Shown here: piece after piece, positions 10,714 through 34,772 of the stretch
Position numbering within the stretch: position 1 is the stretch's first letter
Layout: every line of letters begins with the position of its first letter
Origin: a bacterium
Lineage (GTDB): Bacteria; UBA4055
Length of the DNA: 38,437 nucleotides
Direction: 5' to 3'
Assembly (NCBI GenBank): GCA_029559475.1
Contig: JAKQBN010000066.1
Span: 1 to 38,437 of the forward strand
Translations under genes and position numbers: made by a program
Notes under the pieces: model-generated
The model's database searches: none
Told to the model about the DNA's origin: nothing
The model's input: the letters and a program-made list of their open reading frames with translations, nothing else

Positions 10714-10762
10714 GGTTGTAATAATCCCATAAAAAATATTGAAAATTAATAGATGAGTGTCA

Positions 10763-10790
10763 TTAGATGAACGTCATCCTTTTGTATATT
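10763..10790 (+). promoter_or_regulatory. Promoter/operator module A, copy 1 (before the Bro-N gene)
   Basis: TTAGAT (10763-10768), 16 bp, TATATT (10785-10790). The spacer carries the inverted repeat GATGA-ACG-TCATC (10766-10778). Upstream GATGAGTGTCA and an A/T tract (AAAAAATATTGAAAATTA) are shared with copies 2 and 3. Read as a promoter with an operator in the spacer; the identity of the sigma factor and the repressor is unknown. Confidence 0.65.
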
Positions 10791-10803
10791 GGGTAAAGTT
10801 AAG

Positions 10804-10832
10804 TGGAATATCTGAGGATATTTCGTTAAATT
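10804..10832 (+). promoter_or_regulatory. Promoter/operator module B, copy 1 (before the Bro-N gene)
   Basis: TGGAAT (10804-10809), 17 bp, TAAATT (10827-10832), with the near-perfect dyad AATATCT-GA-GGATATT in the spacer. The match to copy 2 continues through the leader up to the start codon, about 60 bp in all, so the whole leader was duplicated. It stands 14 bp after module A, giving the Bro-N gene two tandem control sites. Confidence 0.6.
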
Positions 10833-10858
10833 ATAGAGTAATGCGAAGGAGCAGAAAG

Positions 10859-11698
10859 ATGGAAGAAAAAAACAGCATGGCGATCTTTGATGATTTCAGG
10901 ATCAGAAGAGTATTCGATAAGGACAAGGACAAATGGTTTTTTTCCGTAGTCGATATTGTTGCAGCGCTGATCGAACAGCCGGATTTGCAGACAGCCCGGA
11001 AATATTGGAATAAGCTCAAGGAGCGTTTAAAAGCTGAAGGTAATGAAACGGTGACAAATTGTCACCAGTTGAAAATGCAGGCTCAAGATGGAAAGATGAG
11101 GCTGACCGATGTAGCAGATGTTGAAACTCTTTTGCGGTTAGTTCAATCTGTGCCTTCAAAGAAAGCTGAACCTATCAAACTATGGCTGGCAAAAGTGGGA
11201 TATGAAAGGATGCAGGAGATGGCCGATCCTGAACTTGCACTCAACAGGTCAAGGGAGTATTGGCAGAGCCACGGAAGAAGCGAAAAATGGATCCAGCAGA
11301 GAATGACAGGTCAGGAAACGAGGAATAAACTTACTGATTACTGGGATGGTCACGGAGTGAAAAAAGGCGATGAATTCGCTATGCTGACAAATATAATTCA
11401 TAAAGAGTGGTCGGGTCTCTCGGTTAAAGATCACAAAGATTTTAAAGGACTTGAAAGGCAGAATTTGAGAGATCACATGAGCGAGGCGGAGCTTATATTC
11501 ACTGCTTTGGCCGAACTTTCGACTAGACAGATCGCTGAAACAGAAAATTCTGAAGGTCTTGAGGAAAATAAAGATTCCGCGGTTAAGGGCGGTAGTATTG
11601 CAAAAGATGCAAGGAAAGCTTTAGAGGATAAAACCGGCAAATCGGTCATTACTGATCAGAATTTTCTGCCGGTCGGAAATAAGAAAAAGATAAAATAG
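10859..11698 (+). CDS. Bro-N domain protein (prophage antirepressor / DinD-like)
   Basis: 279 residues from the ATG at 10859, which has GGAG eight bases upstream; an open frame to 10757 would run through both promoter modules and is rejected. The N-terminus FRIRRVFDKDKDKWFFSVVDIVAALI matches the BRO/antirepressor domain that binds DNA in many phage and plasmid regulators. The centre has ADVETLLRLVQSVPSKKAEPIKLWLAKVGYERMQE, which is typical of the stand-alone chromosomal form. The C-terminal half (SREYWQSHGRSEKW, DYWDGHG, LTNIIHKEWSG) is the conserved helical part of that group, followed by a Lys-rich tail. There are no phage genes near. A regulator of the locus, possibly of its own modules A and B, is an attractive guess. 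Confidence 0.85.
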   Translation: MEEKNSMAIFDDFRIRRVFDKDKDKWFFSVVDIVAALIEQPDLQTARKYWNKLKERLKAEGNETVTNCHQLKMQAQDGKMRLTDVADVETLLRLVQSVPSKKAEPIKLWLAKVGYERMQEMADPELALNRSREYWQSHGRSEKWIQQRMTGQETRNKLTDYWDGHGVKKGDEFAMLTNIIHKEWSGLSVKDHKDFKGLERQNLRDHMSEAELIFTALAELSTRQIAETENSEGLEENKDSAVKGGSIAKDARKALEDKTGKSVITDQNFLPVGNKKKIK

Positions 11699-11736
11699 TA
11701 CCGCAAAAAATATCGAAAATTATTAGATGAGTGCCA

Positions 11737-11764
11737 TTAGATGACCATCATCCCTTTGTATATT
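11737..11764 (+). promoter_or_regulatory. Promoter/operator module A, copy 2 (before the ORF6N gene)
   Basis: TTAGAT (11737-11742), 16 bp, TATATT (11759-11764), with GATGA-CCA-TCATC (11740-11752) across the spacer. The upstream segment AAAAAATATCGAAAATTATT also parallels copy 1. The predicted transcript start lies about 20 bp before the ORF6N ATG. Confidence 0.65.
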
Positions 11765-11789
11765 GCAGGAAATTGACGGAGTAGTGCGT

Positions 11790-12683
11790 ATGTCGGATAA
11801 AGAAATAGAAAAATTAGATGAAGACCTGATCCGGGGTCGGATATATTCTATCAGAGGATTCCAGGTGATGCTGGATAGGGACTTGGCGGAATTGTATGGG
11901 GTTGAGACAAAGATACTTAATAAAGCAGTCAAACGAAACAGCGCAAGATTTCCTGAAAATTTTTGCTTTAAACTCACTCCGGATGAGTTAGAATCTTTAA
12001 GGTTCCATTTTGGAACCATAGAGAACGGTAGAGGGAGGCATAGCAAATATCTTCCTTATGTTTTTACGGAGCAGGGAGTAGCTATGTTGGCAGGGATATT
12101 AACGAGCGAGACAGCTGTAAGAGTCAGTATTTACATAATGAATGCGTTTGTGGCTATGCGCAAGTTTATACAGACGAACGGGCAGTTGTTTCAAAGAGTG
12201 GATAATCTGGAAATCAAGCTTATTGAAACAGATAAAAAAGTTGAGAAAATCCTCGGGGCAATGGAAAGCGGCGATCTGAAGCCGGTGCAGGGAATTTTCT
12301 TTGAAGGTCAGATATTCGACGCTTATAATTTTGTTTCAGAACTGTTCAGAGGCGCGGAAAAGTCCATCCTTATCATAGATAATTACATTGACGATTCGGT
12401 TCTGGTTCATCTGACAAAGGTAAAATCGGGTGTATCAGTCAGAATATTAACAAGATATGTGACGGATCAATTCAAACTGGATGTTAAGAAATTCGAGGCC
12501 CAGTACTTTCCGGTCGAGGTAAAAGTGTTCCCGCACTCGCACGACAGATTCATTATAATTGACGGGCGCGATGTTTATCATGTGGGCGCATCTTTAAAAG
12601 ATCTCGGCAAAAAGTGGGTCGGATTCTCCAAGTTCGGCAAAAGCGCCATAGACATTTTAGGCCGGCTGGAAGAGTTGGACTAA
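11790..12683 (+). CDS. ORF6N domain protein
   Basis: 297 residues from the ATG at 11790, chosen for the GGAG eight bases upstream. The N-terminal ORF6N domain (GRIYSIRGFQVMLDRDLAELYGV, RNSARFPENFCFKLT, YVFTEQGVAMLAGIL) is a DNA-binding domain of the KilA-N/antirepressor group. A short coiled coil (IETDKKVEKILGAM) joins it to a C-terminal domain with IFDAYNFVSELFRGAEKSIL, IDNYIDDSVL and HSHDRFIIIDGRDVYHVGAS, a layout related to phospholipase D-like or nuclease-like folds but with a single H-D block. Such proteins are common in the Bacteroidetes-type accessory genome. It is a second antirepressor-type protein in the same island, under module A. Confidence 0.85.
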   Translation: MSDKEIEKLDEDLIRGRIYSIRGFQVMLDRDLAELYGVETKILNKAVKRNSARFPENFCFKLTPDELESLRFHFGTIENGRGRHSKYLPYVFTEQGVAMLAGILTSETAVRVSIYIMNAFVAMRKFIQTNGQLFQRVDNLEIKLIETDKKVEKILGAMESGDLKPVQGIFFEGQIFDAYNFVSELFRGAEKSILIIDNYIDDSVLVHLTKVKSGVSVRILTRYVTDQFKLDVKKFEAQYFPVEVKVFPHSHDRFIIIDGRDVYHVGASLKDLGKKWVGFSKFGKSAIDILGRLEELD

Positions 12684-12685
12684 AG

Positions 12686-12714
12686 TGGAATATCCGAGGA
12701 TATTTCGTTAAATT
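12686..12714 (+). promoter_or_regulatory. Promoter/operator module B, copy 2
   Basis: TGGAAT (12686-12691), 17 bp, TAAATT (12709-12714). The spacer holds a perfect 7+2+7 dyad, AATATCC-GA-GGATATT (12689-12704). It begins right after the ORF6N stop and lies 27 bp before the next ATG. The leader to 12744 repeats that of copy 1. Confidence 0.65.
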
Positions 12715-12741
12715 ATAAAGTAATGAGAAAGAGCTTAAAGG

Positions 12742-13338
12742 ATGAAGATAAAACTTTTAATATTTGCGTGTCTGCTGGCTCTCGGATATTATTACTGGCA
12801 GAATGATCAGCCTTTAACGCATGAGGGGGAAGGTCAGATCGCGAAAGAACAGCCCGTTCAGAAAACTTCGAATGCGAAGCCTTTTTCGTTCGGGGACGGA
12901 TATCTGATAACTCCGCTCGCTGATTTCAGTATTACCGCGCGTGTGCTTTCCAAAGAAAGGTACCGGATGGATGAAGGCGTAAAGCTGGTCCCTGTCGATC
13001 TTGCTCTTGGCTGGGGGCCGATGTCGGATGATGCGGTTCTTTCAAAGCTGGAAATTTCGCAGAGGAACAGATGGTTCTACTGGAGATGCGATTCCTACCC
13101 TATTCCGAGAGATCAGATCGAGCATAATGCGGCGAATATGCACTTGATCCCGGGCGATGACGATATAGAAAAGAAGATCAAAGGCGTTAAGTCAGGCAGT
13201 CTGGTCAGGTTCTCGGGATATCTTGTCAGGGCAGACAGGCCGGACGGTTGGAAGTGGGAAAGTTCTCTTTCAAGAACAGACACAGGAGATCATTCCTGCG
13301 AGCTGGTTTTCGTTAAGATATTTGATGTAATAGAATAG
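12742..13338 (+). CDS. Membrane-anchored conserved protein of unknown function
   Basis: 198 residues. The N-terminus (MKIKLLIFACLLALGYYYWQ) is a signal anchor, and the rest would lie outside the inner membrane. Conserved-looking segments are LVPVDLALGWGPMSDDAVL, ISQRNRWFYWRC, NMHLIPGDDDI and WESSLSRTDTGDHSCEL. I recognise this as a recurring uncharacterised protein of many bacteria but know no function; two Cys (C115 and C184 region) might form a disulfide. The ribosome site AAAGG directly abuts the ATG and is weak. It lies under module B between the ORF6N and kinase genes, so it may belong to the same response. Confidence 0.75.
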   Translation: MKIKLLIFACLLALGYYYWQNDQPLTHEGEGQIAKEQPVQKTSNAKPFSFGDGYLITPLADFSITARVLSKERYRMDEGVKLVPVDLALGWGPMSDDAVLSKLEISQRNRWFYWRCDSYPIPRDQIEHNAANMHLIPGDDDIEKKIKGVKSGSLVRFSGYLVRADRPDGWKWESSLSRTDTGDHSCELVFVKIFDVIE

Positions 13339-13388
13339 AAAAATATTACTGATTATTTTTTCTGTTGAAGTATTTGACTTAAAACTGG

Positions 13389-13417
13389 TGGAATATCCGC
13401 ATATATTTAGTTAAATT
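13389..13417 (+). promoter_or_regulatory. Promoter/operator module B, copy 3 (before kinase 1)
   Basis: TGGAAT (13389-13394), 17 bp, TAAATT (13412-13417). The left half AATATCC is kept, the right half has changed to ATATATT. Some 40 bp of leader follow to the TTG start. This is the least conserved of the three but has the same spacing. Confidence 0.5.
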
Positions 13418-13458
13418 TAATATTCTGTGCGCGTAAGTTTAAATTAATCAGGTGCGGA

Positions 13459-16400
13459 TTGATCCAGAAAAACACGGTAATAGATTCAGTGTTCATAGTG
13501 CAGAAAAGGCTGGGTACGGGAGCTCAGAGCAGTGTTTATCATGTGAAAACATCTTCGGGCAATTTCGACAGAGCGCTTAAACTGATAGAAGTAACAGAAG
13601 GATCGAAGGAAAAATTCAGTTCCGTGATACAGTCGGTCAAGGATGAATTTTCAATAATAAAATCACTCCGCCACAAAAATATAATCAGGGTATATGACTT
13701 CGGGTACGACAAAAAGCTGGACAAATATTATTATACAATGGATTACCTTGAAGGATATGACCTGAGAAAACATGTCGAACATTATCCTGAAATATCGCGG
13801 TTTCCCGATCTTGTTTATCAGATACTGGACGGCCTGAATTATCTTCATGCCAGCAATATTATCCATTTTGATATAAAACCGGAAAATATTTTTGTTGTGG
13901 ATGATAACGGCAACCCTCTCGTAAAAATCCTCGATTTCGGACTTTCAGAGATAAAAATGCACAATAAACAGGATCAGATAATCAAAGGCACTCTTTCATA
14001 TATAGCACCCGAATTCTTCCTCGACACATCAAAAATTTCCGCTAAGATCGACCTGTATTCTCTTGGAATTACACTTATACATGTCAATAAGGGTATAAAA
14101 GGCAAGAATTCATCGGATGTTGCCGGCAGCGGGATCATAAAAGCGGTCAACGAAGAATATAAAAACAATATGGATCTGCTGAACGAGTTCAGGGATAAAA
14201 AAATTAAATCTTTCATATCCCAGCTCGTTGAAAAAGATCCGGGCACAAGAATATCTTCGGCTGTCGAAGCTGTAATATCTTTGAACAATATCTTCGGTCT
14301 GAATTATAAGATCCCTTCAGTGCACCAGGTTGCATCATTTCTGAACAATCCAAAATTTATCTTGAGAGATGAGATATACCGGGAGCTGAAGCATGAATAC
14401 GATTCAGCCGAATCGGAAAAAGAAGGAAGGACCGTTGTTATATCCGGAGCATCGGGATCAGGCAAGACAAAAATACTTAAACACCTGTTCTTTCAATGCA
14501 GCCTCGATCTGAAAAAAGTGCTTTATGTCTATCTGGAAGACAATACGAGCGTTGATTTTTTCATAGGAAGTCTTCTTTTAAGAAAAATTTACAATCTGTA
14601 CAGGGATGAGATCGATATTGAAAGCGAATACGGAAAGATAAATTCAGAACTGGATGATATTATAAAGAAGGATCAGGACATAACATATATTTTTGACGAT
14701 GTGATAAGTTTTATCGTCAGGTGCTCCCGTTCGGGAAATTTCAGGATTGCTCTTCTTATGGACAATTATGAAAATTACGACAGGGTGTCTTTTAAATTCG
14801 TAAACAGGCTGATCGATCAGAACAGACACAGCGGCGATATTTTCCTGACGGTATCCGTCGCAACGGATAAAATGGACAACAGGGTCGCTCAGAGCTATAA
14901 AATGATCGAGTATGATCCCGAGATAAAAAAGATATTATTACCTCCTCTTTCATTTTCTGAAACTGAAAAAGCTGTCGAACTGCTTCTGGGAAAGATCGGA
15001 AGCCTGCCCCCGGATTTTACAAGAAAAGTTTATGATTTCTCCGGCGGGAATTTTAGAAAGCTGATGGTGTATCTCGACGAATTTTTCAGCGAAGGGGTTC
15101 TCAATTATGTTTCCGGTATCCTCATGTTCAGAGACAATGAAAAATTCAATATGATCTTAAGTTCAAAAAGCGGAAGATCGGAGGAGAAACTGATCGGGAG
15201 TTTAGATAAGAACGGGCTTTTTGTTCTAAGACTGCTGTGTATTACATTCAATAAACTGACCTTTGATGAAATACTCGGGGCTGTTCATTTCGGCGCAGGC
15301 GATCTGAGACGCATTCTGAAAAAACTCGCGGAAATTGAGCTGATAAGCGGTTATGAAGATCTTTACAAAGCTATCAGAAGCGAAGTTAAGAGTTTTGTGT
15401 TCTCTAAAAGTTCTCCGGAGGAACTTTCATCATTATATGAATACGTCGCCGGGCTTAAGCACCATGACAGGTTCAGTCATTATGCATCCAGGCTGATCCG
15501 TTCAATTACTTCAAAGAAGACCTTATATGATCTGGATGCGGTAGGTGATTTTATCGAAAAAATGATCAGATACGACAGCAATGACAATCTTTATTACCTT
15601 CTTTCGAACAGCATAGTATTCGCAGAGAACCGTGAGTTAAGGTTCAGGCTGGAGATAAATTATGCTTATTATCTGAAAAACAAAAAGCCCGAAGAAGCTG
15701 CAAAAGCATTAATTAACCTTGACAGGAAATTCGAAAGCGAGGAAAGCGATATAAGGAACAGGATCAGCTTTATCAGACTTAAACTCAGGATGCTCGATCC
15801 GGATATCTGCGATTATGACGTAAAGGGATTTTTATTAAAAGCGTTCCCGGTGATGGAAAAAGGAATGGACCTTCCTGATATGTTCGGGGAGCTGTATGAG
15901 TTCATTAAAAAGCTTCTGATGACCGGAAGATATTTTGAACACGGTGTTTTTATTACAGAAATGCTTGAAAGGAAATTATCGGGTGAGGAGAACGTTCCAT
16001 TCGAATACCCGAACCTTATCCATACTTTAAAATTTACTTACGGAGTTATAGCCTGGAAGGAAGAATATGAAAAAAAGCTCTCGGAATATATAGGTCTGCA
16101 TGTTGAGAATAAACTTTTCAGCAGCAGTTATTTTCACCTTCTAAGATCAATAGCGGTACTGGCTGAGAAAAATCTTATAAAAGGGGATCTCGGCAAAATC
16201 CTTATCGACGGACTGAAAGAAGCTTACAGGAGCAGAAATATCGATATCATGTTCAGGATGTTTTCCACTTTAGCCACATACAATTATTATAAGGGTAAAT
16301 ACGAGGAGTCGCTCTACTGGGATCAGAAACGTGTCGATATGAAGCAGAAATTAAGGATAGAGCTTACGACGGATGATATAAGCGATATAGCCGTGGTTAA

Positions 16401-17250
16401 GGCGAATCTCTATTATCCTATAGGTGAAGTAATATCTCTTATCCAGGAAACTCGAAGGCAGGCAAAAGAAAGGAATGAGCTTTCGCTTTACATAGAGAAC
16501 ATTACGAACGAATTCGTTCTTCTGCACAGGAAAGGGGATTTCAGATCGGCGAAAACAGCTATAAGGAAAGTATATCTGTATTTCAGAACGCTTCCTGACG
16601 GCGAGACTTTGAGAAATTATGAAAGAGTGGCTAAATATTTCCCCGAAGTATTCTCAAAAGAGGAATCGATCGCAGATGCCCGTGATCTTTTGGAAAACAG
16701 GTCGGTCTCTCCTGATGTGTTCAATAATATGCTGGCTATGCTGGATAAATTTTATGAATACAATATCTGCTACAGATGGTCGCCCGGCAGAACTGATGAG
16801 ATATTGGACGGAACCGTGCATTTAGAAACGCCAATGATGCTTCTTCATTATATCAAAGTGCACAAAAGGCTGCCGAAAAAGGACAGGGTGTTTAAAAACA
16901 TTGAACCGAGATTTCTGAATTCCGAACTGACCGGTGATCATCTGGCTTTTCTGGTTACGAAATTCATGATGACGAAAAATGAAAAACTCATCGATCCTAT
17001 TTTTGAATTCTCCCGGAAACTGCATATTTCAGGATATGTTATGCTGAACGTTTATACGATCATACCGTTTATGGAATTCGCGCTCATGGTTGAAGTTCCC
17101 GGACATAAGATAAAGCAGTTCATCGAATTTTATGAAGAGATCAGGCAGTATATCTATAACAATCTGGATGAGACCCAGGTCGGATTATTTGAATCCACCT
17201 ATTTTTTCAGGCGCGGTAAAAAAATAATAGAATATTTCGACAGAAAATAG
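13459..17250 (+). CDS. Giant Ser/Thr kinase-ATPase-TPR signalling protein (kinase 1)
   Basis: 1263 residues, cytoplasmic. Residues 10-280 are a Hanks-type kinase: G-loop LGTGAQSSV, K41, helix C E63, HFDIKPEN (136-143, catalytic D138), DFG (159-161) and GTLSYIAPE (177-185). The usual HRD Arg is Phe, so this is a non-RD kinase that may not need activation-loop phosphorylation. A STAND/AAA-like ATPase follows with Walker A GASGSGKT (330-337) and Walker B-like ALLMDNYE near 430. The C-terminal 600 residues are helical and TPR-like (YNYYKGKYEESLYWDQK). The end LFESTYFFRRGKKIIEY is identical in kinase 2. It starts at TTG with AGGTG upstream. The general layout resembles PknK-like kinase-ATPase regulators, without their output domain. 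The signal and targets are unknown. Confidence 0.9.
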   Translation: MIQKNTVIDSVFIVQKRLGTGAQSSVYHVKTSSGNFDRALKLIEVTEGSKEKFSSVIQSVKDEFSIIKSLRHKNIIRVYDFGYDKKLDKYYYTMDYLEGYDLRKHVEHYPEISRFPDLVYQILDGLNYLHASNIIHFDIKPENIFVVDDNGNPLVKILDFGLSEIKMHNKQDQIIKGTLSYIAPEFFLDTSKISAKIDLYSLGITLIHVNKGIKGKNSSDVAGSGIIKAVNEEYKNNMDLLNEFRDKKIKSFISQLVEKDPGTRISSAVEAVISLNNIFGLNYKIPSVHQVASFLNNPKFILRDEIYRELKHEYDSAESEKEGRTVVISGASGSGKTKILKHLFFQCSLDLKKVLYVYLEDNTSVDFFIGSLLLRKIYNLYRDEIDIESEYGKINSELDDIIKKDQDITYIFDDVISFIVRCSRSGNFRIALLMDNYENYDRVSFKFVNRLIDQNRHSGDIFLTVSVATDKMDNRVAQSYKMIEYDPEIKKILLPPLSFSETEKAVELLLGKIGSLPPDFTRKVYDFSGGNFRKLMVYLDEFFSEGVLNYVSGILMFRDNEKFNMILSSKSGRSEEKLIGSLDKNGLFVLRLLCITFNKLTFDEILGAVHFGAGDLRRILKKLAEIELISGYEDLYKAIRSEVKSFVFSKSSPEELSSLYEYVAGLKHHDRFSHYASRLIRSITSKKTLYDLDAVGDFIEKMIRYDSNDNLYYLLSNSIVFAENRELRFRLEINYAYYLKNKKPEEAAKALINLDRKFESEESDIRNRISFIRLKLRMLDPDICDYDVKGFLLKAFPVMEKGMDLPDMFGELYEFIKKLLMTGRYFEHGVFITEMLERKLSGEENVPFEYPNLIHTLKFTYGVIAWKEEYEKKLSEYIGLHVENKLFSSSYFHLLRSIAVLAEKNLIKGDLGKILIDGLKEAYRSRNIDIMFRMFSTLATYNYYKGKYEESLYWDQKRVDMKQKLRIELTTDDISDIAVVKANLYYPIGEVISLIQETRRQAKERNELSLYIENITNEFVLLHRKGDFRSAKTAIRKVYLYFRTLPDGETLRNYERVAKYFPEVFSKEESIADARDLLENRSVSPDVFNNMLAMLDKFYEYNICYRWSPGRTDEILDGTVHLETPMMLLHYIKVHKRLPKKDRVFKNIEPRFLNSELTGDHLAFLVTKFMMTKNEKLIDPIFEFSRKLHISGYVMLNVYTIIPFMEFALMVEVPGHKIKQFIEFYEEIRQYIYNNLDETQVGLFESTYFFRRGKKIIEYFDRK

Positions 17251-17252
17251 GA

Positions 17253-17274
17253 AAGGGCGGAAAATTCCGCCCTT
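17253..17274. terminator. Bidirectional terminator hairpin between kinase 1 and the MerR gene
   Basis: Perfect stem AAGGGCGGAA (17253-17262) and TTCCGCCCTT (17265-17274) with a two-base loop, between two convergent genes. There is no long T run, but the stem is strong and lies 2 bp from either stop codon. Confidence 0.75.
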
Positions 17275-17276
17275 CT

Positions 17277-18086
17277 TCATTTGACAGGCACCTGGATCTC
17301 CGTCAGCCAGTCATTAGGATCCTCTTTATTCCAGCAGCCGTCAATGTACGACTCCCTCGGCTGACCGATGATCTCGAGTTTATTATCCTCTATCCACTTG
17401 AAAACAGCCGAATACGTCCTGCCGAAATTCTCGTACGGGCCTCTGTGATAAATGCAGGCCGCCCTTTTAAAGCCTTTCATTTCTTTATAGATAATACCGT
17501 CGGCGTCAGGCAGTTTTTTCACAACCGCCTCGACGATCTCGACATCAATGTCTTTATCCTTACATTCAGGATCGTGATAGATATTGAAGCAGTAGGCGGG
17601 TTCTCTGCATACAACCCCTTGTTTCCTCATTTTATCACCCATCTCAGGCGCCATCGTATAAAGGTAATTGAAGTCCGGTATGATCTTTCTGTAGGTCGCC
17701 GCGATGATATCCGGCAGTTGTTTGATCGTAACTTTTTCCATTTCCAGCTCCGTTTTTAATTCGCTTATCCATTTTTTTAATTGCGATACGCTGTTCTGTT
17801 CTCTGACAATACTGTTTTCTATACTTCTTTTTTTTATTTCGAGGATATCCATCAATTCTCCGGCATCCGGCCTGCCGGTCAGAACAGATGATATCTCCTC
17901 AAGCGAAAACCCCATTTCCTTCAAAGACCGTATCTCGCTGACGAGGGCGAGTTTTTCCGGTTTATAGTACCTGTATCCGTTCTCCCGGCTGATCAGGTCG
18001 GGCGTTACAAGTCCTATCTCGTCATAATACCGGAGCGTCTTTACCGTCGTTCTGCAGAGTTTTGAGAAATCGCCTATTTTCAGCAT
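17277..18086 (-). CDS. MerR family regulator with GyrI-like effector domain (BmrR type)
   Basis: 269 residues from the ATG at 18086, which has GGAG seven bases upstream; the longer open frame begins inside the promoter. Residues 1-70 are the winged helix-turn-helix (MLKIGDFSKLCRTTVKTLRYYDEIGLVTPDLI, NGYRYY). A coiled coil (residues 80-120) gives the dimer. The C-terminal domain (from about 125: DIIAATYRKIIPDFNY, AACIYHRGPYENFGRTY, ...WLTEIQVPVK) is the AraC-binding/GyrI-like fold that binds cationic small molecules. It would activate its own or a divergent promoter. The neighbour across the divergent region is an exported nuclease, not a transporter, so the target is unclear. Confidence 0.92.
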   Translation of the reverse strand: MLKIGDFSKLCRTTVKTLRYYDEIGLVTPDLISRENGYRYYKPEKLALVSEIRSLKEMGFSLEEISSVLTGRPDAGELMDILEIKKRSIENSIVREQNSVSQLKKWISELKTELEMEKVTIKQLPDIIAATYRKIIPDFNYLYTMAPEMGDKMRKQGVVCREPAYCFNIYHDPECKDKDIDVEIVEAVVKKLPDADGIIYKEMKGFKRAACIYHRGPYENFGRTYSAVFKWIEDNKLEIIGQPRESYIDGCWNKEDPNDWLTEIQVPVK

Positions 18087-18120
18087 ACCGCGTCTCCTTT
18101 TCCGTAAGCTTACACCGGTA

Positions 18121-18151
18121 AATATAAACATTCCTGCCGCGGGAGGGTCAA
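18121..18151 (-). promoter_or_regulatory. Predicted MerR-type promoter with 19-bp spacer
   Basis: On the minus strand TTGACC (18151-18146) and TATATT (18126-18121) are 19 bp apart, the long spacing that MerR proteins correct by DNA distortion. A palindrome GTAAGCTTAC stands just downstream at 18104-18113. The spacer itself shows only a weak dyad, so operator placement is uncertain. Confidence 0.5.
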
Positions 18152-18196
18152 GAAAAAATTTTCTTTTTATACAGATATTGCTTATATTTGCGTCTT

Positions 18197-18847
18197 ATGA
18201 AAAACTTTATTAGAATAGCTTTTGCCGCAGTCATACTTCTGGCGGGAGCGTGCTTCTGTTATGAGATCACAGGCAAGGTCATAGGTGTGAAAGACGGCGA
18301 CACTATAGAGATATTGAAGGACATAACGCCGGTTACTCTCAGGCTCGACGGAATAGACTGCCCTGAAAAAAGGCAGGATTTCGGCCAGAAAGCAAAGGAA
18401 TATACTTCGTCGTTGTGTTTCGGAAAGACGGTAAAGGCCGTTATATCGGATAAAGATAAGTATGACAGGCTGATCGCGAAGGTTATTCTGCCTGACGGTA
18501 AAATTTTAAATGATGAAATATTAAAAGCGGGATTTGCCTGGCATTTTAAGAAATATAATTCCGAGAAAAGAACTGCCGATATGGAAACCGCCGCGCGTTC
18601 GAAGCGCATCGGGCTCTGGGCAGGTAAAGATCCCGTTCCGCCCTGGGATTACAGGCACGGCGGAAGTAACGATTCCAAAGCCCCTCCGGTTACAGGTAAT
18701 TTTATAGGATCTGTCGGATCAGGTAAATTCCATAAACTTTCGTGCGAATGGGGAAAAAAGATACCCAACAGCAACAGGATATATTTTAAAACCAGGGAAG
18801 AAGCGCTTCGGCAGGATTATAAACCGTGTAAAGCCTGCAATCCGTAA
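18197..18847 (+). CDS. Exported thermonuclease (SNase-like) with C-terminal Cys-motif domain
   Basis: 216 residues. The ATG at 18197 gives a clean lipoprotein or signal-type N-terminus (MKNFIRIAFAAVILLAGACFC). SNase core: VKDGDTIEIL, LRLDGIDCPEKRQ (R49, D54, E57) and DKYDRLIAKV (R91), which match Arg35, Asp40, Glu43 and Arg87 of staphylococcal nuclease; it should cut DNA or RNA outside the cytoplasm with Ca. After a linker, residues 170-216 form a small domain (FHKLSCEWGKKIPNSNRIYF...YKPCKACNP), as in other secreted nucleases with an Ada-like zinc motif. No ribosome site is seen: TATATT at 18183-18188 places the transcript start within one or two bases of the ATG, so it may be leaderless. Glutamine synthetase follows after 17 bp. 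Confidence 0.92.
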   Translation: MKNFIRIAFAAVILLAGACFCYEITGKVIGVKDGDTIEILKDITPVTLRLDGIDCPEKRQDFGQKAKEYTSSLCFGKTVKAVISDKDKYDRLIAKVILPDGKILNDEILKAGFAWHFKKYNSEKRTADMETAARSKRIGLWAGKDPVPPWDYRHGGSNDSKAPPVTGNFIGSVGSGKFHKLSCEWGKKIPNSNRIYFKTREEALRQDYKPCKACNP

Positions 18848-18864
18848 AATATAAGGAGGATCGG

Positions 18865-20730
18865 ATGCTCGACAGTCTGTGTTATTACGTTAAAGATGAA
18901 AACAAGAACAGGGAAGGATTAAAACTATTAACAGAAGAGCATTCCAATATCAGGTTCGTTTCTCTCTTCGGAGTCGATTTTCTTGGCAACGACGTTGACG
19001 AAAGGATCCCCATCGGCTATTTTCTGGATAATATCGAGGATATTTTTTCAGGTGGAGTCCAGACAGACGGATCCTCTGTGAACCTTCCCGGTATCGCGAC
19101 AATTAATGACGCTAAGATAGATTTTATCGTGGATACGAAAGCGAAATGGTTCATAGACTACAATCTCGAAGGCAATATTTTCGGTACCGAACCGACCGGC
19201 ACTATAAGGATACCCGTTTTTTTCAGGCATCATGATAAGTTCTACTGCTCAAGATCGGTTCTAAAGAATACACTTGAATATGTAAAAAACGAAATGCTGA
19301 GTTTGTTGAGATCCGACAGGGATTTTCTGAAGAGGAATAAAATAGATCATTCAGATATTGCCGACATTTATTTTACGACCGGGACCGAGCTGGAATTCTG
19401 GGTCAGAACGACGATGGACAAGGTATCGAAAGAGGAGCTTTCTCTCAGCCAGGAACTGAAAGAATCCTACTGGAAAAGGACGAAGGGTCAGGTCAGAAAA
19501 TCTCTCGAAGAAACTCTTATAATGCTCGAAAAATACGGCATCGAGCCTGAAATGGGTCATAAGGAAGTCGGTGGTGTTAAAGGAAAGATCAGCCGCGAAG
19601 GAAGGCTTTACGATGTTATGGAGCAGCTGGAGATCGACTGGAGGTTCACCGATCCGCTGCAGGCTGCTGACAACGAAATATTCGTAAGGTATGTAGTAAA
19701 GGAGATATTCAGGAACAACGGGCTGGAGGCGATCTTCGTCGCTAAACCTGTTGACGGAGTCGCGGGTTCGGGCGAGCATATACACATAGGCATGGGGATT
19801 TTATTAAAGAACGGGCGCAGGATAAACATCTTCGCCCCGCAGGATAAAAAACTATATTTGTCGGGCTTCGGTTACGGGGCTTTGATGGGACTTTTAAAGA
19901 ACTGGCGGTCAGTAAATCCGTTCGTTACTAATTCGCATTCGGCTATAAAAAGGCTGCAGCCCGGTTTTGAGGCTCCGGTCAGCGTTGTGGCTTCTTTGGG
20001 ACTTACTCCTGCTTCTCCATCGAGGAACAGGACCGTTCTGACCGGCCTTGTCAGGTCGGACAATCCTTTATCGGTCAGATTCGAGGTCAGAGCGCCTAAT
20101 CCCCATACGAACGTTTATATTGCAGTATCGGCATTTTACCTCGCCATGATCGACGGCATCAGATATTCTGTGAAAAAGAGTGATACCGAACTAGATATTG
20201 AAATAAGGAAAAAGAGCGGGGAGAAAGCCGGGTATCTTTTAAAGGAAAGGCAGTATGTTTCGGAAAGGGACATTTTCGAGCATTATTCGCAGGATGAAAG
20301 GAATAAGCTGTTCGGGATCACTCCGAAGACCGTCTGGGAAATAATCGGCGCGCTGAAGGAGGATATGCCAGTTTTCGATAATACGCCTTTTACTCCCGAG
20401 ATCATATATTCTTATTTTTTAAGTTCCCTTAGAAAGTGGCTTATAGAGATCCGCGAAAAGGAATTTAATTATATGCGTCTTGAGATAGTCAATATGTTCA
20501 GGTATCCTGAAAAAGAGAACGGTCTCGACAGGCAGATATGGGCGGAAGTTCAGGATCTTATTAATGAGATAGCAAAGGACGATGTAAAAAAGCTTTCATT
20601 AATGACGCTTGTGCTAAAAGAGATCGAGAAAGAGGACTTCGCGAAGGTGAGTGAAAGATTCTTCAGTCTTAAGCAGAAGTATTCTTTTTTACTGGCCAGG
20701 TACAAAGAGTACAGGAAGAATATTATATAG
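18865..20730 (+). CDS. Glutamine synthetase, long divergent form
   Basis: 621 residues; makes glutamine from glutamate, ammonia and ATP. Visible GS motifs in order: TDGSSV (68-72), TTGTELEFWV (E175, E177), EPEMGHKEVGG (E229, E234), GSGEHIHIGM (H305, H307), KRLQPGFEAPV (362-372), SPSRNRTVLTG (R387, R389) and RFEVRAPNPHTNVY (E407, R409). It is some 150 residues longer than type I enzymes; the extra length is mainly a helical C-terminal tail (from about 450) like that of the long GS of Clostridia, Spirochaetes and relatives. No adenylylation loop was recognised. AAGGAGG stands six bases before the ATG. It is probably cotranscribed with the nuclease gene. Confidence 0.93.
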   Translation: MLDSLCYYVKDENKNREGLKLLTEEHSNIRFVSLFGVDFLGNDVDERIPIGYFLDNIEDIFSGGVQTDGSSVNLPGIATINDAKIDFIVDTKAKWFIDYNLEGNIFGTEPTGTIRIPVFFRHHDKFYCSRSVLKNTLEYVKNEMLSLLRSDRDFLKRNKIDHSDIADIYFTTGTELEFWVRTTMDKVSKEELSLSQELKESYWKRTKGQVRKSLEETLIMLEKYGIEPEMGHKEVGGVKGKISREGRLYDVMEQLEIDWRFTDPLQAADNEIFVRYVVKEIFRNNGLEAIFVAKPVDGVAGSGEHIHIGMGILLKNGRRINIFAPQDKKLYLSGFGYGALMGLLKNWRSVNPFVTNSHSAIKRLQPGFEAPVSVVASLGLTPASPSRNRTVLTGLVRSDNPLSVRFEVRAPNPHTNVYIAVSAFYLAMIDGIRYSVKKSDTELDIEIRKKSGEKAGYLLKERQYVSERDIFEHYSQDERNKLFGITPKTVWEIIGALKEDMPVFDNTPFTPEIIYSYFLSSLRKWLIEIREKEFNYMRLEIVNMFRYPEKENGLDRQIWAEVQDLINEIAKDDVKKLSLMTLVLKEIEKEDFAKVSERFFSLKQKYSFLLARYKEYRKNII

Positions 20731-20765
20731 GTATCACTTTCTATCGATAGTAATATACCTGAATG

Positions 20766-20782
20766 AAGTTATGTCGGGCATA
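20766..20782 (+). repeat. Dispersed 17-mer, solo copy
   Basis: AAGTTATGTCGGGCATA matches AAGTTATATCAGGCATG at 26053-26069 in 14 of 17 places, and its preceding bases (GAATG) also match. It is the exact reverse complement of 25754-25767 over 14 bp. Further copies are at 25942-25957 (minus, one base shorter) and 33848-33864. Confidence 0.6.
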
Positions 20783-20850
20783 ATAATTTAAACTCCTGAA
20801 AAAAAATCAAAAAAAAGTGAAAAAATTTTCAAAAAAATAGATGAGTGTCA

Positions 20851-20878
20851 TTAGATGACCGTCATCTTTTATTATATT
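20851..20878 (+). promoter_or_regulatory. Promoter/operator module A, copy 3 (before the PUR gene)
   Basis: TTAGAT (20851-20856), 16 bp, TATATT (20873-20878). The spacer holds the best inverted repeat of the three, GATGAC-C-GTCATC (20854-20866). GATGAGTGTCA lies directly upstream and a long A tract before that. The 5' leader to the ATG at 20928 is about 43 nt. The 120 bp between the glutamine synthetase gene and this site hold only the palindrome CTATCGATAG (20741-20750) and one copy of the dispersed 17-mer (20766-20782). Confidence 0.7.
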
Positions 20879-20927
20879 ACCGGTGTTCTAACTAAAACCG
20901 CTAATGTAAAAACTAAGGAGAATCAAA

Positions 20928-21437
20928 ATGGAACAGCAGAACTACAACACGGAAGTTTACTCGGCGAACTTCAAAACCGGGAACAGAACGTACTTCATCA
21001 ACCTGCTCGAAGCGAAGAACAGAGCAAAGTACGTAAGGATCACAGAAAGCAGAAAGGTCAGCGATACAGAATTCCAGAAAAACCGCATCATGCTTTTTCA
21101 GAATGACATGGTTAAACTGGCAAAAGTGCTCAATCTGGCCGTGTCGAAGATCAAAAGCAGCGAAGTAAAAGACGAGCAGCTCCCGCTCGATGAGACCGGC
21201 GAAGACACTCAGACCGCGACTGATAACGAAACCCAGGATAAATCCGTTCCGGAAGATCAGGATACTGAAAGTCAGAAATATCCTAATTCAGGGAAAAAAT
21301 GGACAAGGGAGGACGAGGAAAAACTCGAATTTTTGTTCAAAGCCGGAAAAACCGTCGATGATCTCACCGAAATATTCGGAAGAAAGCAGAAAGGCATCGA
21401 GAGCCGATTAGAAAAACTCGGTCTGATTGAAAAATAA
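20928..21437 (+). CDS. PUR-type (DUF3276-like) nucleic-acid-binding protein with C-terminal Myb/SANT-like helix domain
   Basis: 169 residues. The N-terminal 75 (EVYSANFKTGNRTYFINLLEAKNR, YVRITESRKVSDTEFQ, NRIMLFQNDMVKLAKVLNLAV) match the PUR-alpha-like fold that binds single-stranded nucleic acid, known in Bacteroidetes and spirochaetes. A strongly acidic linker (DETGEDTQTATDNE, residues 85-115) follows. The C-terminus (KKWTREDEEKLEFLFKAGKT, then IFGRKQKGIESRLEKLGLI) is a Myb/SANT-like three-helix domain as found in some bacterial DNA-binding proteins. AAGGAG precedes the ATG. The gene is under module A and ends at a terminator, directly before kinase 2. It may be a transcription factor of this network. 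Confidence 0.85.
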   Translation: MEQQNYNTEVYSANFKTGNRTYFINLLEAKNRAKYVRITESRKVSDTEFQKNRIMLFQNDMVKLAKVLNLAVSKIKSSEVKDEQLPLDETGEDTQTATDNETQDKSVPEDQDTESQKYPNSGKKWTREDEEKLEFLFKAGKTVDDLTEIFGRKQKGIESRLEKLGLIEK

Positions 21438-21560: not shown

Positions 21561-24500
21561 ATGACGGATAAGAAAAATATTTTTTCGGAATCAGCTCAGA
21601 AAAGAATATTCGACAGTTCGCACGATGCCTTTATAATTTCAGATATAAAAACAAAGATCGTTTATGCCAACCGATCAGCCCATAAGATCTTCGGATATGA
21701 AACGGGAGCCATGATCGGTATGAGCATACTTGAATCCATGCCTGAAGACAAGCGCGACAATTATTTTAAAGATATGGAGAAGTCGCTAAAAGGTGAAACA
21801 GTCTCAAATTCAGATTCAGGACAGGAGCTGTATGCGAGAAAAAAGAACGGCGATGTTTTTCCTATCGAGCTGACATATATTCATTACAGACAGAACGAAG
21901 AAGATTATTTTGTAACCCAGATCAAGGATATATCGGACAGAAGAAAATTTGAAAAAGAACAGACAGGAGATGGCCCTTCATCAGAAGGGCGGTTAATTGA
22001 TTCATTATTCAGGATAGAAAAACAGCTCGGAAGCGGTTCCCAGGGGCTAATATATCACGTAAAAACCGTTGCATCCGGTTTTGATTTAGCTCTCAAGCTG
22101 ATAAACATTCCGTCTGAAACTAAATTTCAGATGGAAGACATAATCGAGTCAGTCAAAGCGGAATTCTCAATAATAAAATCGCTACACCACAGAAATATTA
22201 TCGGAGTTTACGACTTTGGGTGCGACAAAAATCTCGACAAATATTATTACACAATGGATTATCTACAGGGTATGGACCTAAGAGATTATGTAGCCCAGAA
22301 TCCCCGCAGTTCGCATTTCCCGAGTATAGTTTATCAGATATTAGACGGCCTTAATTACCTGCATTCTAACAACATAATACATTTCGACATCAAACCCGAA
22401 AATATTTTCATAATCAATAAAGGTAACGACCCGCAGGTAAAAATACTCGATTTCGGGCTGTCTGAGATCAAAAAGCACAATAATCAGAACCTGAGCGCGA
22501 AAGGCACTCTTTCATATATAGCTCCCGAATTTTTTCTGGATCCGACTAAAATTTCTCCGAAGATCGATCTGTATTCGCTGGGAATATCGCTGATACATGT
22601 TAACAAAGGAATGAAAGGAACAGGGACCGAAAGCATAGGGAAAGGAAGCATACTTCAGGCTTTGAACGCTGAATACGAAAGGAATATGGAACTTCTTGAT
22701 ACTTTCAGGGATAAAAAGATAAAGTCGTTCATATCGCAGCTTACCGAAAAAAATCCGGGAACAAGAATATCGTCAGCTGTTGAGGCTATAATCTGGCTGA
22801 ACAGAATATTCGGCACGAATTTTAAAATTCCGTCGGTACATCATATAACTTCATTTTTGAACAATCCGAAATTTGTTCTGCGTGATGAAGCATGTAACAA
22901 ACTGAAGGAATACAGATCGGGCGGGTCGGTTCTGCTTACGGGACTGTCAGGAACAGGCAAGTCAAAACTTCTCAATCAGCTGGTTTTCGAATCATCGCTG
23001 GATCTTCAGAAAGTGTTAAAGATCTATCTGGATGACAACACCAGCGAAGATTTTTTTACGGGAAAGATCCTTCTGAAAAAATTATACAACCTTTACAGAT
23101 CTGATATAAATATCGAAGATGAATATGCAAAGATAACCGCCGATCTTGAATCGATAATCGAAAAAGAGCAGGATTATTCATATATTTTTGATGATATAAT
23201 CGCGCTTATCTTCAAATGCTCGTCAGCCGCTTCCCGGCTGACACTTCTGTTCGATAATTACGAGAGATATGATACTGAATCAGCGAGGTTCGTCAACAGG
23301 CTTTTTAACATAAACAAGAATACGGCTCAGGCTTTTATCGTTATTTCGGTCGCTACAGACAAGATGAATGAAACAGTATCGCAAAGCTATAAACTTATGG
23401 AGTTCGATCCCGAAGTTACAAAGATCGACCTTCCTCTTCTTTCCTACGATGAAACTCACGAGGCGATCGAGCTGTTTTTGGGTAAGATCGGCAGCCTCCC
23501 TGCAGATTTCGCGAAAAAGATCTACGATCATTCTGGAGGCAATTTCCGCAGACTTATGGTCTATTTTGACGAGTTTTTCCAGAACGGAATTCTAAATTAT
23601 GTTTCCGGACTGCTTTTATTCAGGGATCAGGAAAAGTTCAATACGATACTTAGATCGAAGAACGGCAAATCCTTAAAAAGTCTTACTGAAGGTCTCGATG
23701 ACGACGAGATGTACGTTCTTAAACTGTTATGCGTTACGATAAATAAGCTCACGATCGACGAGATAAAAGGGTTCATATCTTTAAACGAATACGATCTGAA
23801 AACCACATTGAACAAGCTTTTTGCAAGCGAACTGATCAGCGGATACAACGATCTTTATAAGGCTATCCGCAGCGAAGTCAAGAATTTCGTTTTTAAAAGA
23901 TGCACGACCGAAGAACTGATCCGGATATACACTTTTATAGCAGAACTTCAGCACGAGGATAAATTCAGCCAGTACGCGGTTCTTCTGATCAAAGCCTTCA
24001 TCTCGCCCGCTCCGTTAAAGAACCTGAGTACGATCGACAGATATATCGAAAGACTGGAAAAGGGCGACACGAACGATAATCTGTTCTATCTTTTGTTGAA
24101 CAGTCTAAAAATAGCGACAGATAAAGAGCTCCGGTTCAGACTTGAAGTTAACTACGCACGTTTTCTTATGAAGAAAGATACTGTAAAGGCGGTCAAGCTG
24201 ATCGAAAATCTTGATGTATTTTACAGAAAAAAAGACAGGGACATCAGTAATAAGATCAGTTTTATCAGGCTTAAATTAAAGGTACTTGACTTCGAAAAAT
24301 ACAATTATGACGCATTCAGCTTCGTTGAAAAGGCCATGCCGGTTATGGAAGCGGGAATGAAAGCAGAAGAGATATACATTCTTCTGACGGATTTCATTAA
24401 AAACCTGCTCGATTCAGGCGAGTATTTTTCACAGGGAGTAAAGATCATTACGCTTCTCGAGAGTAAATTCGCAAGGGACGTCTATGTTCCGTTCGAGTAT

Positions 24501-25742
24501 CCCAATGTATTGAACACAGTTAAATTCGTTAACGGTGTTGTAGAGTGGAAGGAAGAATATGAAAAGCTGGTTTCGGGATATATTGATGCTCATATCAAAG
24601 CGCAGCTTTTTAATAACAGCTATTTCTATCTGCTTAAATCTATCGGACTTCTGGTGGAAAAGGATCTTTTAAAGAACGATTATTCAGAAAGGCTAACTTA
24701 CGGGCTCGAAATGGCATACAAGCTGAAAGATCTGGAAAATATGTTCGTAATGTATACTACCCTCTCGACTTATCACTATTATAAAGGCAATTACGAAAAA
24801 TCGCTTTACTGGGACGAGAAAAAGATCCATCTGAAACAGAAGCTGAAAAAAGAGCTTAATACGAATGATATAGGTGATATCGCTACAACAAAAGCAAATC
24901 TCTATTATCCGCTCGGAGAGGTTATTTCTCTGATTCAGGAATCCAGAAGGCAGGCCAAGGAGAAAAATGAGCTTTCCAATTACATACTTAATATTACGAA
25001 CGAATTTATTCTTCTTCACAGGAAAGGTGATCTTAAGAACGCCAAGTCCGCTATCCGAAAAGCGTATCTGTATTTCAAAACTATTCCCGACCAGGAGATT
25101 TTAAGGAATTATGACAGGTGCGCCAAATATTTTCCGGAGGTGTTTTCTAAAAAAGAAGCTGTGGAAGACACTGAAAAGCTTTTGTCCGAGAATACTGTTT
25201 CGGCTGAAGTATTCAGGAAAATGAAGGAACTGCTCGATAAATATTATGAGTTCAATATCTGCTACCGATGGGCTCCGGCTATGATGGAAGAGATACTTTC
25301 GGGTAATCTCGAGATCGAAACGCCGATGATGCTTCTTCATTACCTCAAGCAGTACAGGCGGCTGCCCGTTCCCGAAAAAGTTTTCGGGAAGATAGAACCG
25401 CGGTATCTGAATCCGGAATGTACGGGCGATCATCTGGTTTTCCTTGTCACGAAATTTATGATGTCTAAGGATTTCGGTCTGACCGATTCTATATTCGAGT
25501 TTTCTAGAAAGCTTCATATTGCCGGATATGTTATGATCAATATTTACACGATCATCCCTTTCATGGAATTCGCGCTTATGGTAAATATCTCGAAAGACAG
25601 GCTTAAAAGATTTATCGAATTTTATGAGGAGATCAGTTCTTATCTTTACGAGAATATGGACGAAGATCAGATCGGCCTTTTTGAATCTACTTATTTTTTC
25701 AGGCGCGGCAAAAAAATAATAGAATATTATAATAATCTGTAA
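21561..25742 (+). CDS. PAS domain-Ser/Thr kinase-ATPase-TPR signalling protein (kinase 2)
   Basis: 1393 residues; a full-length paralogue of kinase 1 with about 138 extra residues in front. Residues 10-130 are a PAS domain (IFDSSHDAFIISDIKTKIVYANRSA, FGYETGAMIGMSIL, RKKNGDVFPIEL, FVTQIKDISDRR), a likely sensor of redox, ligand or light. The kinase follows: LGSGSQGLI, HFDIKPEN (274-281, D276), DFG (297-299) and GTLSYIAPE. Walker A is GLSGTGKS (461-468); a Walker B-like segment is LTLLFDNYERYD. The helical C-terminal half has the TPR-like unit YHYYKGNYEKSLYWDEK, and the end LFESTYFFRRGKKIIEYY. Again the HRD Arg is Phe. The ATG lacks a close ribosome site (AAGG is 11 bases away). Kinase 1 lacks the PAS part, so the two probably receive different signals. 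Confidence 0.9.
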   Translation: MTDKKNIFSESAQKRIFDSSHDAFIISDIKTKIVYANRSAHKIFGYETGAMIGMSILESMPEDKRDNYFKDMEKSLKGETVSNSDSGQELYARKKNGDVFPIELTYIHYRQNEEDYFVTQIKDISDRRKFEKEQTGDGPSSEGRLIDSLFRIEKQLGSGSQGLIYHVKTVASGFDLALKLINIPSETKFQMEDIIESVKAEFSIIKSLHHRNIIGVYDFGCDKNLDKYYYTMDYLQGMDLRDYVAQNPRSSHFPSIVYQILDGLNYLHSNNIIHFDIKPENIFIINKGNDPQVKILDFGLSEIKKHNNQNLSAKGTLSYIAPEFFLDPTKISPKIDLYSLGISLIHVNKGMKGTGTESIGKGSILQALNAEYERNMELLDTFRDKKIKSFISQLTEKNPGTRISSAVEAIIWLNRIFGTNFKIPSVHHITSFLNNPKFVLRDEACNKLKEYRSGGSVLLTGLSGTGKSKLLNQLVFESSLDLQKVLKIYLDDNTSEDFFTGKILLKKLYNLYRSDINIEDEYAKITADLESIIEKEQDYSYIFDDIIALIFKCSSAASRLTLLFDNYERYDTESARFVNRLFNINKNTAQAFIVISVATDKMNETVSQSYKLMEFDPEVTKIDLPLLSYDETHEAIELFLGKIGSLPADFAKKIYDHSGGNFRRLMVYFDEFFQNGILNYVSGLLLFRDQEKFNTILRSKNGKSLKSLTEGLDDDEMYVLKLLCVTINKLTIDEIKGFISLNEYDLKTTLNKLFASELISGYNDLYKAIRSEVKNFVFKRCTTEELIRIYTFIAELQHEDKFSQYAVLLIKAFISPAPLKNLSTIDRYIERLEKGDTNDNLFYLLLNSLKIATDKELRFRLEVNYARFLMKKDTVKAVKLIENLDVFYRKKDRDISNKISFIRLKLKVLDFEKYNYDAFSFVEKAMPVMEAGMKAEEIYILLTDFIKNLLDSGEYFSQGVKIITLLESKFARDVYVPFEYPNVLNTVKFVNGVVEWKEEYEKLVSGYIDAHIKAQLFNNSYFYLLKSIGLLVEKDLLKNDYSERLTYGLEMAYKLKDLENMFVMYTTLSTYHYYKGNYEKSLYWDEKKIHLKQKLKKELNTNDIGDIATTKANLYYPLGEVISLIQESRRQAKEKNELSNYILNITNEFILLHRKGDLKNAKSAIRKAYLYFKTIPDQEILRNYDRCAKYFPEVFSKKEAVEDTEKLLSENTVSAEVFRKMKELLDKYYEFNICYRWAPAMMEEILSGNLEIETPMMLLHYLKQYRRLPVPEKVFGKIEPRYLNPECTGDHLVFLVTKFMMSKDFGLTDSIFEFSRKLHIAGYVMINIYTIIPFMEFALMVNISKDRLKRFIEFYEEISSYLYENMDEDQIGLFESTYFFRRGKKIIEYYNNL

Positions 25743-34685: not shown

Positions 34686-34734
34686 GCACAACGTGCGGCT
34701 AAACGCCACATGGCGTATAGCCGCTACGTTGGAG
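34686..34734 (-). other. attC-like site before grpB
   Basis: On the minus strand the site reads CTCCAAC (34734-34728), then a stem CGTAGCGGCTATACGCC, loop ATGT, GGCGTTTAGCCGCACG, and GTTGTGC (34692-34686). The stem has one bulged base and one mismatch. The R' box GTTGTGC is the exact complement of the R'' box GCACAAC after grpB, as expected for the two ends of one cassette. The 60 bp to the grpB ATG hold no gene. Confidence 0.5.
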
Positions 34735-34772
34735 CTTGTTTTCAGAAGCTAAACGTCATATGGCGTTTAGCC
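34698..34772. repeat. Two tandem palindromic 25-mers with a period of 50 bp
   Basis: GCTAAACGCCACATGGCGTA... (34698-34722) and GCTAAACGTCATATGGCGTT... (34748-34772), both ending TAGCC, agree at 22 of 25 places and each folds back on itself around CATG or CATATG. The first is the stem of the attC-like site. A partial third copy (GAAGCTATACG) follows at about 34794. The gap up to the stop of the outer-membrane gene at 34844 shows nothing else. Confidence 0.65.

What the first reader, a model, noticed from the sequence alone, without database searches (positions are those of the whole stretch)
10732..20880. Three copies of promoter/operator module A define a possible regulon
Seen: TTAGAT, 16 bp, TATATT at 10763, 11737 and 20851, each with a GATGA-N3-TCATC inverted repeat in the spacer, GATGAGTG(T/C)CA just upstream and an A-rich tract before that. 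The copies precede a Bro-N gene, an ORF6N gene and a PUR/Myb gene, all encoding likely nucleic-acid-binding proteins. Inference: a repressor binds the dyad and controls all three; two of the products are antirepressor-type proteins that could act on it.
Basis: partly seen in the sequence, partly recalled or inferred. Interest (0 to 1): 0.75.

Follow-up and report, generated by a model that had tools for sequence, protein, structure and literature searches.

The report
Phylum-wide DNA-handling regulon operator, Delongbacteria
The three repeated promoters are members of a regulatory network shared across an uncultured bacterial phylum (Delongbacteria): one palindromic switch drives genes that process incoming DNA (dprA, radC, comM) together with many mobile phage-type genes, and the switch's sequence has changed in step across all of those genes in each genus.

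Summary
The anatomy was misread. The real unit is a 27-31 bp palindrome (13-bp arms, 5-bp centre). 'TTAGAT' is its centre, not a -35, and GATGA-N3-TCATC is its right half. An UP-like A/T tract precedes it, and TATATT starts 20 bp from the centre in 80 of about 95 sites. The genome holds 12 clear copies, and 11 of the 13 held genomes of the phylum carry it, about 130 sites. Its arms differ by genus while the dyad is kept, and the version follows the genome, not the gene (118/125 leave-one-out). Orthologous promoters keep it: dprA in 9 genomes, radC 7, DUF3276 7, PFK 4, plus comM, yraN and recQ once each. Most other targets are KilA-N-superfamily genes, DUF1016 and REP-type transposases. Closely related genes sit behind each genome's own operator. 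Best reading: a dedicated regulator of DNA-processing (competence-like) plus captured accessory genes; regulator unidentified, activator versus repressor undecided.

The parts
10731..10751 (+). A/T-rich UP-like tract of module copy 1
   Evidence: conserved AAAWWWWTTnAAAAWWWA profile 16-33 bp upstream of the centre in 93 non-redundant sites
10752..10778 (+). palindromic operator, copy 1: GATGAGTGTCA-TTAGA-TGAACGTCATC (centre 10765)
   Evidence: genome-wide copies; dyad covariation
10785..10790 (+). TATATT, presumed -10 box, first T 20 bp from the palindrome centre
   Evidence: spacing statistics
10859..11698 (+). Bro-N domain gene (279 aa) under copy 1
   Evidence: Pfam PF02498 E=1.2e-6; homologue with the local operator version in G010 (77% aa identity)
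11705..11725 (+). A/T-rich UP-like tract of module copy 2
11726..11752 (+). palindromic operator, copy 2: GATGAGTGCCA-TTAGA-TGACCATCATC (centre 11739)
11759..11764 (+). TATATT, presumed -10 box of copy 2
11790..12683 (+). ORF6N gene (297 aa)
   Evidence: Pfam PF10543 E=6.8e-33; all 5 intact ORF6N genes of this genome carry the module, the 2 broken ones do not
20820..20839 (+). A/T-rich UP-like tract of module copy 3
20840..20866 (+). palindromic operator, copy 3: GATGAGTGTCA-TTAGA-TGACCGTCATC (centre 20853)
20873..20878 (+). TATATT, presumed -10 box of copy 3
20928..21437 (+). DUF3276 / PUR-type nucleic-acid-binding protein (169 aa)
   Evidence: Pfam PF11680 E=5e-12; module at orthologous promoters in 7 genomes

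Best explanation
The three copies are operator-promoters of one regulon of the phylum Delongbacteria. A single DNA-binding regulator, acting as a symmetric dimer, recognises a 27-31 bp palindrome centred about 32 bp upstream of the presumed transcription start, where a -35 box would be, between an UP-like tract and a TATATT -10 box. Its targets fall into two layers. One is a conserved layer that handles DNA entering or recombining in the cell (dprA, radC, DUF3276/PUR, in single genomes comM/yifB, yraN and recQ) plus PFK. The other is a mobile layer of ORF6N, RhuM, KilA-N, Bro-N/DinD, DUF1016 and REP-transposase genes that have been acquired or duplicated behind the local operator. The likeliest physiology is a competence-like or incoming-DNA response; the likeliest mode is activation. 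Shown here: the motif, its distribution, dyad covariation, fixed spacing, target genes and genome-specific versions. Inferred: the regulator, the sign of regulation and the inducing condition.
For: 12 clear copies in G000, control pattern 0. 32 and 27 copies in G010/G012 found with a pattern that ignores the -10, controls 0. CM hits in 11 of 13 genomes of the phylum. Dyad covariation: 71 double-change cells against 39 shuffled, 0/500. TATATT exactly 20 bp from the centre in 80 of about 95 sites, including 46 of 51 sites of the g6 set. Operator version follows the genome: 118/125 leave-one-out, 6 of 7 errors within one genus. Orthologous dprA, radC, DUF3276 and PFK promoters carry each lineage's version. 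Every standalone dprA with a readable promoter has it; G011 keeps half a site; the G004 and G006 genes are inside operons. Target identities. dprA, radC and comM are competence-controlled genes in Pasteurellaceae (PMC5809987); dprA and radC in pneumococcus (PMC6560143). -35 depletion: 1.89 against 2.58 matches of 6 in shuffles.
Against: comEC, the DNA-uptake channel gene, has no such palindrome in five genomes tested, and G000 itself shows no ComEC match. PFK is not a DNA-processing gene. comM, yraN and recQ were seen with the module in only one genome each. No regulator gene was identified, and nothing was expressed or bound. All genomes are draft assemblies and the -10 and start sites are inferred. 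Weakest CM hits (G006 C46, G008 C35, G000 C60) lack the core and are probably chance hairpins.
Confidence: 0.66

Rival explanations
1. Repressor regulon: a dimeric repressor occludes RNA polymerase at the palindrome and is released by a DNA-related signal. A BrxR-like winged-helix/WYL protein is the best structural candidate.
For: The palindrome covers the -35 region. Geometry matches BrxR operators: 11-bp (or 10-bp) inverted repeats with a 5-bp spacer (PMC9122601). Every genome has a WYL protein, and G001, G002, G005 and G011 have only one, about 360 aa. Many targets are defence- or phage-like genes.
Against: None of the WYL genes inspected has the palindrome in its own promoter, and WYL proteins also occur in G004 and G011, which lack the regulon. 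Classical repressor operators tolerate varied positions, whereas here the position is fixed to about 1 bp in nearly all sites. No consensus -35 is present for a repressor to block.
Confidence: 0.3
2. SOS-type DNA-damage regulon with a lineage-specific LexA box.
For: Palindromic operator, DNA-repair-like targets (radC, recQ, DinD/Bro-N).
Against: LexA DNA-binding family gives only a sub-threshold match in G000. No recA, lexA, uvrA, ruvA or DNA polymerase gene was recognised behind about 130 sites in 11 genomes, although recA was not searched for directly.
Confidence: 0.08
3. A mobile repeat (REP, MITE or transposon end) that happens to sit upstream of genes, for instance spread by the REP-type transposases that are among the targets.
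For: Y1/REP transposase genes carry the module in G010, G012 and G006. Hairpin-forming sequence. Arrays with repeated operator+leader.
Against: Almost always one orientation and one position relative to TATATT. Present at orthologous dprA, radC and DUF3276 promoters across genera with arms changed in step. No transposase-bearing target was found in G000-G003, G005 or G009. No viral contig carries it.
Confidence: 0.05
4. The hairpin acts as RNA (terminator or leader element) rather than as a DNA operator.
For: Long near-perfect hairpin flanked by A and T runs; covariation as in an RNA stem.
Against: Core and centre letters are conserved, not just pairing. Few G-U pairs. It lies upstream of the -10 box and so would not be in the downstream gene's transcript.
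Confidence: 0.06

Closest known systems
Late-competence regulons (pneumococcal ComX regulon; Pasteurellaceae CRP-S/Sxy regulon)
   Same: dprA and radC (and comM in Pasteurellaceae) under one shared promoter element; the Pasteurellaceae element is also a palindrome (PMC6560143, PMC5809987).
   Different: Different, longer palindrome with a 5-bp centre; comEC not included; most targets are mobile KilA-N-superfamily genes; regulator unknown.
BrxR/CapW-family WYL operators of phage-defence islands
   Same: 10-11 bp inverted repeats with a 5-bp spacer (PMC9122601); defence- and phage-like targets.
   Different: Those are local autoregulated repressors next to their genes; this is genome-wide, includes conserved dprA/radC, and the WYL genes here lack the site.
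LexA/SOS regulons with lineage-specific boxes (general knowledge)
   Same: Operator sequence shifts between lineages while part of the target set persists.
   Different: No LexA above cut-off in G000; no classical SOS genes recognised among targets.
Integron-like cassette arrays (general knowledge)
   Same: Arrays of single genes separated by a repeated element (G008 C31, G010 C167).
   Different: No recombinase shown; the repeat is a promoter; conserved chromosomal genes carry it too.

Membership tests
Competence (late-gene) regulon | dprA under the shared element | tested here: met
   9 genomes with the site at dprA; G011 half-site; G004/G006 dprA inside operons; no dprA found in G010
Competence (late-gene) regulon | radC and comM under the shared element | tested here: inconclusive
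   radC in 7 genomes; comM/yifB (TIGR00368) seen in only one, G012
Competence (late-gene) regulon | DNA-uptake genes (comEC) under the shared element | tested here: not met
   no core palindrome upstream of comEC in G002, G003, G005, G010, G012; no match in G000
Competence (late-gene) regulon | induction together with DNA uptake | not testable with these tools
   uncultured organisms, sequence only
BrxR-type WYL operator | about 10-11 bp inverted repeats with 5-bp spacer | tested here: met
   searches compared with PMC9122601
BrxR-type WYL operator | site upstream of the WYL gene itself | tested here: not met
   no core palindrome at the WYL gene starts inspected
LexA/SOS regulon | a LexA repressor in the genome | tested here: not met
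   only a sub-cut-off PF01726 match in G000
LexA/SOS regulon | recA, uvr and lexA among targets | tested here: inconclusive
   none recognised among the roughly 130 downstream genes; recA promoters not examined directly
REP/MITE repeat | either orientation, position not tied to promoters | tested here: not met
   fixed 20-bp distance to TATATT
Sigma-70 promoter with TTAGAT as -35 | -35 hexamer near TTGACA at 16-18 bp | tested here: not met
   mean best match 1.89/6, below shuffles 2.58/6, 126 sites

The most novel reading that the evidence does not exclude
The operator-leader repeat is a gene-capture platform. Transferable units (leader plus open reading frame) move between genera, probably with DNA taken up by transformation, and are recombined in through the shared leader so that the newcomer falls under the recipient's own regulator. 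This would build integron-like arrays of mobile genes inside a competence-type regulon without an integrase.
Probability: 0.2. Interest if true: 0.85.

Novelty: new variant of a known kind. Interest (0 to 1): 0.62.

Why it matters
It gives a cis-regulatory handle on a phylum with no cultured model known to me, and it ties two things rarely connected: the DNA-processing genes of natural transformation and the very common but unexplained solitary KilA-N/ORF6N/Bro-N/RhuM/DUF1016 genes. The operator changes in step within each genome, and related genes in different genera sit behind each genome's own version, so regulator-operator coevolution and the control of newly acquired genes become directly testable. 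I found no paper on this: the library holds 14 papers naming Delongbacteria, none in title or abstract, and none joining these gene families with competence.

Tried and rejected
LexA search: only a sub-cut-off match, so no SOS repressor. Rfam scan: nothing. tRNA scan: none, so no tRNA-based integration reading. Viral contigs searched for the operator, for the second repeat and for the leader: no match; one distant ORF6N/RhuM-like hit only. ORF6N homologues on plasmids of other phyla: three upstream regions read, no such palindrome, so there is no sign that the operator travels with ORF6N outside the phylum. WYL regulator idea: geometry fits, but no autoregulatory site and no matching presence/absence; kept as a lead. 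comEC promoters: negative. One exact scan of 84,980 species genomes for the g1 form found only UBA12480 (Delongbacteria) and one hit in Metasolibacillus that lacks the -10 layout. A site inside the gmhB-like coding sequence of G010/G012 is unexplained.
Full report
WHAT IS IN THE WINDOW. The three copies are real and exact. Each has the layout A/T tract, 27-bp near-palindrome, 6 bp, TATATT, then a start codon 25-68 bp later, before Bro-N, ORF6N and DUF3276/PUR genes. The chance of even one such composite in 38 kb is negligible (about 6e-13 by composition).

RE-READING THE ANATOMY. Comparison with other copies shows that the true dyad is GATGAGTGTCA-TTAGA-TGA(C/A)NNTCATC: arms of 11-13 bp around a 5-bp centre. 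In other genera the centre is CTATA, CTATT or CGATT and the half-sites are not internally symmetric, so those two elements are not the conserved ones. A 93-site profile shows an UP-like AAAWWWWTT...AAAAWWWA tract, an invariant GTCA...TGA core, TATATT starting at +20 from the centre, and a G/C-biased pair directly after it. No -35 hexamer is present; matches to TTGACA at 16-18 bp are fewer than in shuffles.

DISTRIBUTION. The window lies in a 2.28-Mb draft genome, G000. In G000 there are 12 clear copies, with 0 in the reversed-pattern control of the stricter search. No match within 2 mismatches was found in the 48 held genomes from other families. A model with the hairpin finds sites in 11 of the 13 genomes held for the phylum, about 130 in all, 125 with the core. 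A search that ignored the -10 found 32 and 27 copies in G010 and G012, with 0 in controls; in the g6 set 46 of 51 sites have TATATT at exactly 20 bp and 3 more at 19.

COEVOLUTION. The arms differ by lineage: GATGAGTGTCAT (G000), TTGAGGGTCAC (G001/G002), ATGAGTGTCAC (G003), GGCGTGTCACG (G005/G009), GCAAAAGGTCAC (G007/G010/G012), CAAAAGCTCAC (G008), each with a matching partner arm. Double changes that keep the dyad exceed all 500 shuffles, with few G-U pairs. The shuffle control does not correct for relatedness, but sliding the partners by 1-3 columns drops pairing from 82% to 33-49%. Leave-one-out assignment gives the right lineage for 118 of 125 sites; 6 of the 7 errors are between sister lineages of one genus. 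This is what a shared trans-acting factor with drifting specificity predicts.

TARGETS. Conserved layer: dprA in nine genomes, radC in seven, DUF3276 in seven, 6-phosphofructokinase in four; in single genomes comM/yifB, yraN (UPF0102) and recQ. All dprA genes with their own readable promoter have the site; in G004 and G006 dprA is inside an operon, and G011 keeps only a half-site and has no other site, as if the regulon had decayed there. Mobile layer: 42 ORF6N/RhuM-like genes, 8 Bro-N, 5 KilA-N, 3 further Bro-N/DinD-like, 6 DUF1016, 8 REP-type Y1 transposases, and singletons such as an AlbA/Schlafen-like protein (representatives were checked against Pfam/NCBIfam, some singleton names rest on reading the sequence). 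All five intact ORF6N genes of G000 carry the module and the two broken ones do not. At PFK the module stands upstream of a normal TTGACT-N17-TATATT promoter in G000-G002, which shows what an ordinary promoter looks like here.

GENES MOVE, OPERATORS STAY. A DinD-type gene is 95% identical in DNA over 322 bp between G008 and G005 (97% over 90 aa, against 61% for DprA of the same pair). The identity starts at the -10 box; the operator upstream is each genome's own. One roughly 45-nt leader (TATATTGCTCTT...AAAAGAGTAATTTAAC) precedes unrelated genes in seven genomes of four genera, each behind its own operator. G008 and G010 contain arrays of three or four single genes, each with its own copy. Either newcomers are recombined in behind a resident operator through the shared leader, or the operator is remodelled quickly after transfer; the data do not separate these.

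MECHANISM. Shown: a positionally fixed dyad-promoter shared by a defined gene set and coevolving by lineage. Inferred: a dimeric regulator. The fixed 20-bp spacing, the absence of a -35 and an UP-like tract just outside the palindrome favour an activator that substitutes for the -35 contact (about 0.6); occlusion by a repressor remains possible (about 0.3-0.4). The condition is most likely the presence of incoming or single-stranded DNA, because dprA, radC and comM are competence-controlled genes in Pasteurellaceae (PMC5809987), and dprA and radC late-competence genes in pneumococcus (PMC6560143). Against a full competence regulon, comEC lacks the site. SOS is unlikely. The regulator is not identified: the WYL family fits by operator geometry (PMC9122601) but shows no autoregulation and no matching presence/absence.

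VERDICT. It is a new regulon of a known general kind, with an unusual coupling of DNA-processing genes to mobile genes.

Noticed in passing
10803-10832, 12685-12714, 13388-13417: A second dispersed repeat, GTGGAATATCCGAGGATATTTCGTTAAATT (hairpin plus TTAA), in the Bro-N leader, after ORF6N and before the kinase/STAND gene; only these three in G000, with a similar stretch in the leader of a RhuM-like gene of G003; no viral match.
   Followed up: partly
13459-17250 and 21561-25742: Two long paralogous genes repeating each other at 71-80% DNA identity in blocks; the first, 1263 aa, is a protein kinase with an AAA/STAND-like ATPase. They bracket the PUR gene region.
   Followed up: no
G000 C35:17665-17958 (L057): An apparent RhuM-like/ORF6N chimera joined through the shared C-terminal region, without the module.
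   Followed up: no
G010 C9:3578-3600 and G012 C47:13448-13470: An exact left-half-plus-core match inside the coding sequence of an apparent heptose-bisphosphate phosphatase (gmhB-like), conserved in both genomes, without TATATT; unexplained.
   Followed up: partly
G000 C2:13245-13271 (L009): A perfect version of the palindrome (GAAGAGTGTCATTAGATGACACTCTTC) about 50 nt after the stop of a HerA-like ATPase gene, with no -10 at the usual spacing; possibly a terminator derived from the operator.
   Followed up: no
leaders in G010, G012 and G007: Some leaders contain a GTAGGGGAAGGCTCCCACGCCTTCCC REP-like hairpin in genomes where REP-type transposases are regulon members.
   Followed up: no
34696-34773: A strong inverted repeat (26-bp arms, 88% complementary, 26 nt apart) between genes.
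   Followed up: no
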